Positions 58,079 to 61,889 of a stretch of 64,000 nt of DNA are shown here, piece after piece. The DNA is taken from the IMG/VR virus record IMGVR_UViG_3300050120_000169, positions 16,088 through 80,087 of that record, one strand, 5' to 3'. Within the stretch, counting starts at the first letter, position 1; each line of letters begins with the position of its first letter. Made by a program: the position numbers and the translations under genes. The notes under the pieces were generated by a model. That model had not been told where the DNA came from, searched no databases, and saw only the letters and a program-made list of their open reading frames with translations. This stretch comes from a virus.

Positions 58079-58104
58079 GAATACGGGCTTTATGGCATGG
58101 GTGC

Positions 58105-58136
58105 TGGGTAAGAGAAGCTTCCTAGGTAAGCCTCTT
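58105..58136 (+). other. Hairpin before orphan tRNA C 3' half
   Basis: GTAAGAG pairs with CTCTTAC and, inside, GCTT with AAGC around a 7-nt loop. Similar in place to the 9-bp stem before tRNA B, so it may be an intron-like end. Confidence 0.4.
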
Positions 58137-58171
58137 ACTTAACAGCGGTTCAAATCCGCTGGGGTCCACCA
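58137..58171 (+). tRNA. Orphan tRNA C, 3' half
   Basis: T arm AGCGG-TTCAAAT-CCGCT (58144-58160), acceptor strand GGGGTCC (58161-58167), A, encoded CCA. The partner would be GGACCCC; I do not find it nearby in either direction. Sits 5 nt before tRNA-Ser. Confidence 0.55.
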
Positions 58172-58176
58172 GTTTT

Positions 58177-58264
58177 GGAAGTGTGGCTGAGTGGGTTAAG
58201 GCAGCGGTCTTGAAAACCGTCGAGTCGAAAGGCTCCGTGGGTTCGAATCCTACCACTTCCGCCA
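58177..58264 (+). tRNA. tRNA-Ser (UGA anticodon)
   Basis: Full cloverleaf: acceptor GGAAGTG/CACTTCC, D arm, anticodon arm GCGGT-CTTGAAA-ACCGT (anticodon TGA 58211-58213), long variable arm, T arm, G and encoded CCA. Reads UCA codons. Confidence 0.9.
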
Positions 58265-58415: not shown

Positions 58416-58498
58416 ATGCGGGTGGCTGAGTGGACTAAGGCACTGGCCTGCAAAGCCAGCGAACTTCGGTTCCGTGGGTTCGAATCCCACCCCGCATT
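58416..58498 (+). tRNA. tRNA with Cys anticodon GCA and long variable arm
   Basis: Acceptor ATGCGGG/CCCGCAT, Ser-like D arm (GCTGAGTGG..TAAGGC), anticodon arm CTGGC-CTGCAAA-GCCAG (anticodon GCA 58450-58452), variable arm with a GAAC-TTCG-GTTC stem, T arm GTGGG-TTCGAAT-CCCAC, discriminator T, no encoded CCA. GCA and U73 are Cys identity elements, but the long arm is of class II (Ser/Leu/Tyr) type. Confidence 0.85.
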
Positions 58499-58501
58499 AA
58501 C

Positions 58502-58577
58502 GGGCGTGTAGCGCAATTGGTAGAGCACTTGATTCTGAGTCAAGAGGTTCTAGGTTCGAGACCTAGCGCGCCTGCCA
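58502..58577 (+). tRNA. tRNA-Gln (CUG anticodon)
   Basis: Acceptor GGGCGTG/CGCGCCT, anticodon arm CTTGA-TTCTGAG-TCAAG (anticodon CTG 58535-58537), class I variable loop, T arm CTAGG-TTCGAGA-CCTAG, G and encoded CCA. Reads CAG. Confidence 0.85.
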
Positions 58578-59910: not shown

Positions 59911-60096
59911 ATGAACCAGCACCAACCGAGAAAGCACAAACCCCACTGCCGTTACTGCGTGAAGGAAGCTGTGGATCAACACGATGATGGATCACATGTG
60001 TGTGAGGATCATCAGAAACACACGCGGTGGGGGCAGGTAGCGGTCGCCATGTTGGACCGGCCCTACGATGAATGCCAGATAGACGAACCCAAGTAG
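59911..60096 (+). CDS. Zinc-finger-like protein, 61 aa
   Basis: ATG 59911 chosen for AAGGAG upstream; ATG 59881 is possible. CxxC/H set (HCRYCVKEAVDQHDDGSHVCEDH) likely binds zinc. Role unknown. Confidence 0.6.
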   Translation: MNQHQPRKHKPHCRYCVKEAVDQHDDGSHVCEDHQKHTRWGQVAVAMLDRPYDECQIDEPK

Positions 60097-60115
60097 CAGT
60101 CTCTAAACAGACCGT

Positions 60116-60131
60116 CCGCAATCAATTGCGG
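60116..60131 (+). repeat. Dispersed palindrome copy 21 (CCGCAATCAATTGCGG)
   Basis: Followed by CGGCC and a T-run, so it may also act as a weak terminator just before thyX. Confidence 0.85.
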
Positions 60132-60155
60132 CGGCCTTTTTTATGTGGGGTAAAA

Positions 60156-61889
60156 ATGACCGGTGCCGTACGACTCATAGCATTAACCAAACCCGTGATA
60201 GACGAATGTATAACAGCCGAGGATCTAGTGGCCTTCTGCGCTCGTGTTAGCAACCCAGCGAATCAGGCCAACCACGACACAGCAGGTAAGTTGTTGAAAT
60301 ATCTGGCGAAGAACAAGCACTGGTCCCCATTTGAAATGGTTAATGTGGTACTGGAAATCACGACGACCCGGGACATTGCCCGTCAGATCTTGCGACACCG
60401 ATCTTTCAGTTTTCAGGAATTTTGTGTTACTGGGGACACTCGGATTACCTTGGAATTGCCCAACGGAGTGGCAAAGGGGAAACGGGCTGCATACACCAGA
60501 ACTATTGAACAGTTATACCGCCTTCAACAAGAATCCCCTAAACGTTTGCCCAAGTGTGTCCGAGTTTTTGATGAGAACACTAGGGCTTTTGTCACGGCCC
60601 CGATCAAAGAAGTATTCCAGACGGGAGTTAAGCCTGTTTTTCGTATCACGATGGCGAACGGAAAAACCATTGATTGCACTAAGGAGCATAAATTCCTTAC
60701 TCAAGAGGGTTTTATACCTATTGAAGACGCAATTGGTCTTAAGGTGCTTGGCACAAAGGCTGTAATGACCAACCCCAATACTTTTCTAGCCTGTAATGGA
60801 GTTACTGCACACCAGGATCGTGATTGGTTAGTGGCCTCCAAGAGTCGCTCTATTCAGGCAGGTTCTGGACTACAAGGCATAGCCAAAGAGGCGGGGGTAA
60901 CAACCCATACCATACGTAAGTGGTTGAAACACCATCAAGTACAGTTCACCAAGAAAGAGGTGTCTTCTTATACACCCGCTTGGAATAGAGGGGTCACAGG
61001 GTACAGCACGGGTAAGCGTAGTCTTACGACTATTCAAAAAATGAGAGCTTCGGCAAAGAAGGGGGCGGATTCCAATTTGTGGCGCGGGGGAGTTAGCAGG
61101 TCGGAAAGACTACGTATTGCTGACTGGTGCACGGCTCACAGGGCAGAATTTTTAATCAAGGCTGGGTATAAGTGCCAACGCTGTCGTAGTAGCTTGAAAC
61201 TAGAACTCCACCATATGCAGACAGTTGCTGCTCGTCCTGATCTGGCTTATGACAAAGAGAACATAGAAGTTCTGTGTAACGTTTGTCATGACAAACACCA
61301 TGCTTTGAACGGGGACGCCAAAAAATGGCGTGAAAAACATAAAGGCCACACACTAACAGTGGAGTGGTGCAAAGTAAGTAAAGTGGAATTTCTAGGTGAT
61401 CACATGACTTACGACCTAGAAGTTCAGCATGACTCCCATAACTATGTGGGGAATGGTCTGGTTGTGCATAACAGTCAACGCTACGCGGCTGTAGTGGACT
61501 TCGCGGAGCCACGCGAGGCGCGGATGCAGGATGCCAAGAACAGACAGAACAGTACCCCGGCTGATGACGCGTTGCTGGCTGGTTGGTGGGAGCAGGCACA
61601 AGCAACGCATATTACGAACACAGAGAAGCTATACAAGACGGCGCTCGATGCAGGTATTGCCAAGGAAGTGGCCCGGTCGGTGTTGCCAGAGGGTCTTACG
61701 ACCAGCCGCCTATATATGTCGGGGTCGCTCAGGAGTTGGATTCACTACGTGCTACTGCGCACGGGCAATGGCACCCAGTTAGAACACCGGCATATCGCGC
61801 TGCGCTGTCAGGGGGTGCTGGTTGAGCAGTTCCCTGCACTTTCAGTACTTTTCGAGACAGAACATGACCAAGCTGACAGTACTCATTGA
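60156..61889 (+). CDS. thyX: Flavin-dependent thymidylate synthase ThyX, interrupted by an intein
   Basis: Makes dTMP from dUMP using FAD and methylene-THF. 577 aa precursor from ATG 60156 (GGGG upstream). N-extein 1-89 (... RHRSFSFQEF, the ThyX motif RHRxxSxNE-type), intein 90-439, then SQRY, completing RHR...SxxxxSQRY. The C-extein has the remaining ThyX body (TSRLYMSGSLRSWIHYVLLR, QLEHRHIALRCQ). The spliced enzyme would be about 227 residues, usual for ThyX. Overlaps the next gene by 26 nt. Confidence 0.9.
   Translation: MTGAVRLIALTKPVIDECITAEDLVAFCARVSNPANQANHDTAGKLLKYLAKNKHWSPFEMVNVVLEITTTRDIARQILRHRSFSFQEFCVTGDTRITLELPNGVAKGKRAAYTRTIEQLYRLQQESPKRLPKCVRVFDENTRAFVTAPIKEVFQTGVKPVFRITMANGKTIDCTKEHKFLTQEGFIPIEDAIGLKVLGTKAVMTNPNTFLACNGVTAHQDRDWLVASKSRSIQAGSGLQGIAKEAGVTTHTIRKWLKHHQVQFTKKEVSSYTPAWNRGVTGYSTGKRSLTTIQKMRASAKKGADSNLWRGGVSRSERLRIADWCTAHRAEFLIKAGYKCQRCRSSLKLELHHMQTVAARPDLAYDKENIEVLCNVCHDKHHALNGDAKKWREKHKGHTLTVEWCKVSKVEFLGDHMTYDLEVQHDSHNYVGNGLVVHNSQRYAAVVDFAEPREARMQDAKNRQNSTPADDALLAGWWEQAQATHITNTEKLYKTALDAGIAKEVARSVLPEGLTTSRLYMSGSLRSWIHYVLLRTGNGTQLEHRHIALRCQGVLVEQFPALSVLFETEHDQADSTH
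60423..61472 (+). mobile_element. Intein with HNH homing domain in ThyX
   Basis: 350 residues from Cys1 (CVTGDTRI, block A) to His-Asn (GLVVHN, block G), with Ser as +1. Block B-like GKTIDCTKEHKFLTQEG. The middle carries an HTH (IAKEAGVTTHTIRKWL), and a zinc HNH domain (CQRCRSS ... LHHMQT ... VLCNVCHDKHH). Block F: EFLGDHMTYDLEV. All splicing residues look intact. Confidence 0.9.

What the first reader, a model, noticed from the sequence alone, without database searches (positions are those of the whole stretch)
58416..58498. tRNA with Cys anticodon and long variable arm
The anticodon GCA and discriminator U73 are Cys-type, yet the tRNA has a 4-bp variable stem with a UUCG loop, and D and T arms almost identical to the neighbouring tRNA-Ser. 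Bacterial tRNA-Cys normally has a short variable loop. It may be a Ser-derived tRNA that changed identity, or a tRNA that could misread Cys codons as Ser.
Basis: partly seen in the sequence, partly recalled or inferred. Interest (0 to 1): 0.72.

Follow-up and report, generated by a model that had tools for sequence, protein, structure and literature searches.

The report
Phage cysteine tRNA with serine-like arm
A phage carries a cysteine-reading tRNA that has the long side arm normally found on serine tRNAs; it is one of a recurring phage group whose discriminator base and acceptor stem look cysteine-type, so it is probably charged with cysteine rather than swapping serine into proteins.

Summary
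A 7/5 tRNA gene at 58416-58498 has anticodon GCA, U73 and a 4-bp variable stem with a UUCG loop. Its D and T arms match the adjacent tRNA-Ser at 34 of 37 positions, the closest same-contig pair among those compared. It is not unique. Patterns blind to position 73 found 55 other unique class II GCA tRNAs (the 56 form 43 clusters at 90% identity), almost all viral and including phiCbK and CcrColossus. Of all 56, 54 have U73, the major CysRS determinant. The G2:C71 pair is near-universal in phage tRNA-Ser (72/73) but present in only 16/56 of these, as in ordinary phage tRNA-Cys (24/63). The window's acceptor stem (A1:U72, U2:A71, U73) is strongly Cys-like. About 6% of sampled phage GCA tRNAs are class II. 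None was found in the Gammaproteobacteria sampled. Long arms also occur on other class I isotypes in phages. Most likely this is a Cys-charged tRNA, possibly built on a Ser body. It stands apart by a Ser-type arm geometry (2 of 56) plus A1:U72, so partial SerRS charging cannot be excluded without experiments. No paper held here discusses class II tRNA-Cys in phages; selC* tRNA-Cys is the nearest known kind.

The parts
58416..58498 (+). tRNA-Cys(GCA), class II, 7/5 acceptor/T stems, U73
   Evidence: ARAGORN, Rfam RF00005 55.4 bits
58416..58422 (+). acceptor 5' strand AUGCGGG (A1:U72, U2:A71)
   Evidence: sequence; Cys-like by acceptor log-likelihood ratio +9.35 nats
58425..58441 (+). D arm GCU...GGC; with positions 8, 9 and 26, 18/20 identical to neighbouring tRNA-Ser
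58450..58452 (+). anticodon GCA (loop CUGCAAA 58448-58454)
58460..58473 (+). long variable arm C-GAAC-UUCG-GUUC-C (1 nt, 4 bp, 1 nt: Ser-type geometry)
58474..58490 (+). T arm, 16/17 identical to neighbouring tRNA-Ser
58498..58498 (+). discriminator U73; no encoded CCA follows (AAC)
58177..58264 (+). neighbouring tRNA-Ser(UGA), G1:C72, G2:C71, G73, CCA encoded; possible parent of the D, T and variable arms
58502..58577 (+). tRNA-Gln(CUG), 3 nt downstream, probably co-transcribed with the Cys gene
   Evidence: co-transcription inferred from spacing

Best explanation
This is a working phage tRNA-Cys that carries a class II (long) variable arm. Shown: the cloverleaf, GCA anticodon, U73, non-Ser acceptor stem, and membership of a recurring phage group with conserved U73. 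Inferred: the gene is co-transcribed with the tRNA-Gln 3 nt downstream; RNase P cuts at the Gln 5' end, the 3' tail is trimmed and the host enzyme adds CCA. Host CysRS, which reads U73 and the GCA anticodon, charges it with cysteine despite the long arm, and it decodes UGC and UGU in phage mRNAs. Its D, T and variable arms probably came from a tRNA-Ser, likely the adjacent one or its relative, with a new anticodon arm, acceptor stem and discriminator. Loss of G1:C72, G2:C71 and G73 would reduce SerRS charging. The long arm is probably tolerated rather than needed; phage tRNAs of several other class I isotypes also carry such arms while keeping their own discriminators.
For: U73 and GCA are the major Cys determinants in E. 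coli and yeast (PMC9976931). Patterns that ignored position 73 gave 58 class II GCA tRNAs (window included) in viral contigs, 57 with U73; in the non-redundant set 54 of 56, in 43 clusters at 90% identity, 29 at 80%. Phage tRNA-Ser in the same data: mostly G73 (59/73). G2:C71: Ser 72/73, class II Cys 16/56 (p = 4e-19), class I phage Cys 24/63 (no difference, p = 0.33). Acceptor-stem classifier: leave-one-out correct for 60/64 Ser and 55/57 class I Cys; 44/55 class II Cys called Cys-like, window +9.35 nats, +11.5 with position 73. Other class I isotypes with long arms: 17/500 in an open sample, 41/474 in contigs that have a class II Cys. The phage has 213 Cys codons in 68 ORFs (12.7 per 1000), including the first residue of the ThyX intein and CxxC pairs in its HNH domain.
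Against: No charging data exist here. The window's arm has the Ser geometry, seen in only 2 of 56 class II Cys tRNAs, and serine identity rests mainly on the variable arm and not on the anticodon (PMC9976931). A1:U72 is rare (1 of 56 in the class II set; 5 of 63 class I phage Cys), and a review states that ordinary CysRS would not recognise A1:U72 in selC* tRNA-Cys (PMC7609411). E. coli tRNA-Cys uses G15-G48, while this one has G15-C48 by direct reading. U73 could in part be shared ancestry within clusters.
Confidence: 0.72

Rival explanations
1. It is read by host SerRS through its Ser-type arm and inserts serine at some or most Cys codons (mistranslating or dual-identity tRNA).
For: Ser-type 1-4-1 arm, D/T arms 34/37 identical to the neighbouring tRNA-Ser, serine identity independent of the anticodon and resting mainly on the variable arm; G73 not required for unmodified E. 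coli transcripts in vitro (PMC9976931).
Against: G1:C72 and G2:C71, absolutely conserved in E. [quoted passage not shown] U73 instead of G73; the related group is U73 in 54/56; functional Cys residues are encoded by UGC/UGU in this phage.
Confidence: 0.14
2. It is a passenger or non-translational gene: a remnant or decoy (for example a bait for anticodon nucleases) that is not charged.
For: No encoded CCA, A1:U72, and a poorly formed tRNA-like call at 58085 nearby suggests decay in the cluster.
Against: All five stems are intact, with Watson-Crick pairs except one G-U in the D stem; conserved T-loop bases; Rfam 55.4 bits; U73 kept across diverged relatives, many of which also lack an encoded CCA.
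Confidence: 0.1
3. It belongs to the selC*/allo-tRNA type (tRNA-Sec-like tRNA-Cys with its own CysRS*).
For: Class II arm, U73, GCA and A1:U72; A1:U72 is reported for Desulfobacterales selC* tRNA-Cys (PMC7609411).
Against: 7/5 rather than 8/4 or 9/3, no A51a bulge.
Confidence: 0.02
4. Mis-read variable region of an ordinary short-loop tRNA-Cys.
For: None beyond the prior that tRNA-Cys is class I.
Against: Acceptor, T and variable stems pair perfectly around a 14-nt variable region; two programs agree.
Confidence: 0.02

Closest known systems
Class II tRNA-Cys of phiCbK, CcrColossus, Karma, Rogue and Brevundimonas phages (GenBank 'tRNA-Cys')
   Same: Phage-encoded, GCA; U73, long variable arm and 7/5 stems read directly in the Caulobacter phage cases.
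   Different: They have G1:C72, encoded CCA and arms of other geometry; the annotations, and the phiCbK genome paper as far as its tRNA passages were read, do not remark on the arm.
selC* tRNA-Cys (Mukai et al. 2017, as reviewed in PMC7609411)
   Same: Cys identity elements (U73, GCA) on a class II body; A1:U72 in Desulfobacterales.
   Different: 8/4 acceptor/T stems with A51a bulge, bacterial, in some groups linked to selB*/cysS*; the window tRNA is 7/5.
Allo-tRNAs (class II, 8/4 or 9/3, Ser isoacceptors; PMC7609411)
   Same: Class II body; from my own knowledge, their anticodons need not be Ser anticodons.
   Different: Suggested to be SerRS-charged, with a 12-bp acceptor domain; the window tRNA has U73 and lacks G2:C71.
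Ordinary bacterial and phage tRNA-Cys (class I)
   Same: GCA, U73, similar acceptor-stem statistics, D arm often GCCGAGTGG..RGC.
   Different: 4-5 nt variable loop.

Membership tests
tRNA-Cys | GCA anticodon in a 7-nt loop | tested here: met
tRNA-Cys | discriminator U73 | tested here: met
   54/56 in the class II group
tRNA-Cys | short (4-5 nt) variable loop | tested here: not met
   14-nt region with a 4-bp stem; hence 'class II variant', not a canonical tRNA-Cys
tRNA-Cys | charged by CysRS | not testable with these tools
   needs aminoacylation assay
tRNA-Ser | long variable arm with Ser geometry (1 nt, 4 or more bp, 1 nt) | tested here: met
tRNA-Ser | G1:C72 and G2:C71 | tested here: not met
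   A1:U72, U2:A71; phage Ser G2:C71 72/73
tRNA-Ser | G73 | tested here: not met
   U73
selC* tRNA-Cys | 8/4 acceptor/T stems with A51a bulge | tested here: not met
   7-bp acceptor, perfect 5-bp T stem
selC* tRNA-Cys | linked selB*/cysS* genes (in some groups) | not tested
   no dedicated search made; the contig is a linear record whose completeness is not given

The most novel reading that the evidence does not exclude
The tRNA has dual identity: its Ser-type arm lets SerRS compete with CysRS, so the phage makes part of its proteome with Ser at Cys codons during infection.
Probability: 0.1. Interest if true: 0.85.

Novelty: new variant of a known kind. Interest (0 to 1): 0.5.

Why it matters
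In textbook terms a bacterial long variable arm marks Ser, Leu or Tyr (and Sec) tRNAs. Here a recurring phage group carries it on tRNA-Cys with Cys identity elements, and smaller numbers of phage tRNAs for His, Asn, Lys, Thr and others carry it too. That suggests the arm is compatible with other identities in nature and gives ready-made test cases, some in cultured phages of Caulobacter crescentus, for how CysRS and SerRS share or reject a tRNA. It also warns that isotype prediction from tRNA body type can be wrong for phages.

Tried and rejected
The search for related loci with the 352-aa protein upstream of the tRNAs found no relatives, so conservation of the gene in close relatives of this phage could not be tested. 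blastn of the tRNA alone against annotated phages returned tRNA-Ser genes at 75-78%, which by itself would have suggested a plain Ser relative. The scan of bacterial genomes returned mainly class I tRNA-Cys because a second GGTTC in the 3' strand fits the pattern; only 2 class II U73 cases (L104, L134, both on short MAG contigs that may be phage) and one G73 case (L112) were real by ARAGORN. This also showed that a 'GGCCGAGTGG' D arm is ordinary for tRNA-Cys, so the D arm alone does not prove Ser origin. Spacing patterns in 369 and 185 genomes of the class of G001 (Neiella marina, Gammaproteobacteria) gave only non-tRNA matches; a class I positive control rang in 73 of 94. ARAGORN calls some Ser tRNAs one base out of register, which inflates their apparent U73 (13/73), so G2:C71 is the cleaner contrast. 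Paper searches found no discussion of class II tRNA-Cys in phages, but most subscription papers are not held. A consensus scan found no credible promoter or terminator around the tRNAs.

Full report
What is there. The window is bases 16,088-80,087 of an 80,087-base virus record. Between small ORFs lie tRNA-Ser(UGA) at 58177, tRNA-Cys(GCA) at 58416 and tRNA-Gln(CUG) at 58502, plus a poorly formed tRNA-like call at 58085. The Cys gene matches Rfam tRNA at 55.4 bits over 58416-58498. It has 7/5 stems, a 14-nt variable region (C-GAAC-UUCG-GUUC-C), G15-C48 by direct reading, A1:U72, U2:A71, U73 and no encoded CCA. The phage has a contractile-tail sheath 45% identical to Klebsiella phage Chronis and relatives, and a UvsX-like recombinase 51-52% identical to Stenotrophomonas phages Summit, DLP_3 and DLP_5, so a gammaproteobacterial host is likely but not shown.

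Relation to the neighbouring tRNA-Ser. D arm 18/20 and T arm 16/17 are identical, while the acceptor and the anticodon arm (9 of 17) are not. Among 37 class II Cys/Ser pairs from the same contig this is the closest, and only 0.08% of 5,295 pairs from different contigs reach it. The variable arm has 1 unpaired nt, 4 bp and 1 unpaired nt. This is the common Ser geometry (41 of 73 phage Ser) and rare in class II Cys (2 of 56), where a Tyr-like 1-3-3 form is frequent (21 of 56). So a Ser body for this gene is credible; the D arm alone would be weak evidence because ordinary tRNA-Cys often has a similar D arm.

A recurring phage group. Patterns fixing the D loop, the Cys anticodon loop and the T arm, with room for a long arm but blind to position 73, were scanned over the viral contigs. 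ARAGORN confirms 58 class II GCA tRNAs including the window, 57 with U73. With the open sample and the genome scan the non-redundant set is 56, 54 with U73, in 43 clusters at 90%, 29 at 80% and 15 at 75% identity. Cultured phages are included: CcrColossus, Karma and Rogue among the loci, and by similarity phiCbK and several Brevundimonas phages, mostly annotated simply as tRNA-Cys; the tRNA passages of the phiCbK genome paper do not mention the arm. In an open sample that allowed both arm lengths, 4 of 62 GCA tRNAs were class II, about 6%; this leaves out two class II loci already held, so it is a slight underestimate. Spacing scans of 369 and 185 genomes of one bacterial class found none.

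Which synthetase. U73 and GCA are the major Cys determinants; serine identity rests on the variable arm, with G1-C72 and G2-C71 absolutely conserved in E. [quoted passage not shown] In the phage tRNAs here G2:C71 is in 72/73 Ser, 16/56 class II Cys and 24/63 class I Cys (Fisher p = 4e-19 for Ser against class II Cys; 0.33 for class II against class I Cys). Related sequences are counted here, so the p-value is not to be taken literally. A simple acceptor-stem classifier gives the window tRNA +9.35 nats towards Cys, above the 95th percentile of class I Cys (8.6). Hence the acceptor end looks Cys-type and the arm looks Ser-type. That the arm can go with other identities is supported by long arms on class I isotypes that keep their own discriminators, such as His C73 and most Asn G73: 17 of 500 in the open sample and 41 of 474 in contigs with a class II Cys. 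Some single ARAGORN calls in those counts may be wrong.

Mechanism proposed. Inferred steps: co-transcription with tRNA-Gln, RNase P cleavage, 3' trimming, CCA addition by the host, CysRS charging, and decoding of the phage's 213 UGC/UGU codons (12.7 per 1000). Those codons include the first Cys of the ThyX intein and CxxC pairs of its HNH domain, where Ser would be expected to harm function, although host tRNA-Cys would also read them. The main open point is A1:U72, rare in phage tRNA-Cys and reported as a problem for ordinary CysRS with selC* tRNA-Cys (PMC7609411), together with the Ser-type arm; this leaves room for partial SerRS charging.

Placement. It is a tRNA-Cys variant that fails the short-loop criterion of canonical tRNA-Cys, fails the acceptor and discriminator criteria of tRNA-Ser, and fails the 8/4 criterion of selC* tRNA-Cys. 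I file it as a new variant of a known kind: class II, 7/5, phage-encoded tRNA-Cys. The group exists in public records but I found no paper in the held library that discusses it; that is a limited search.

Noticed in passing
58085-58171: ARAGORN calls a tRNA-Phe(GAA) with GU-rich acceptor, odd anticodon stem and a 20-nt variable arm; Rfam does not reach its cut-off. It has a good T arm and an encoded CCA, and looks like a decayed or unusual tRNA.
   Followed up: partly
60072-61889: ThyX-type thymidylate synthase interrupted by an intein with an HNH domain. The intein starts at Cys (TGT, 60423) after RHRSFSFQEF, ends in VVHN before SQRY, and so sits inside the ThyX signature motif.
   Followed up: partly
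L019, L035, L053, L060, L158, L160, L172, L203 and others: Long stem-loop variable arms on phage tRNAs for Asn, His, Lys, Thr, Glu, Asp, Ile, Met, Pro and Trp, most with the usual discriminators of those isotypes: 17 of 500 in an open sample, 41 of 474 in contigs with class II tRNA-Cys.
   Followed up: partly
L032, L037, L048: Caulobacter-type phages also carry a class II tRNA with CAU anticodon and U73; its identity is unclear.
   Followed up: no
L112 (Verrucomicrobia MAG QHPG01000202.1): Class II GCA tRNA with G73, Ser-like at the discriminator: a candidate for a Ser-charged tRNA that reads Cys codons, or a pseudogene.
   Followed up: no
H110-H113 (Pseudomonas phages phiHQ, PA1C, LBG22, BRkr): A region 78% similar to the CcrColossus class II tRNA-Cys, annotated tRNA-Asn in three of the four records (LBG22 has no annotation).
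   Followed up: no
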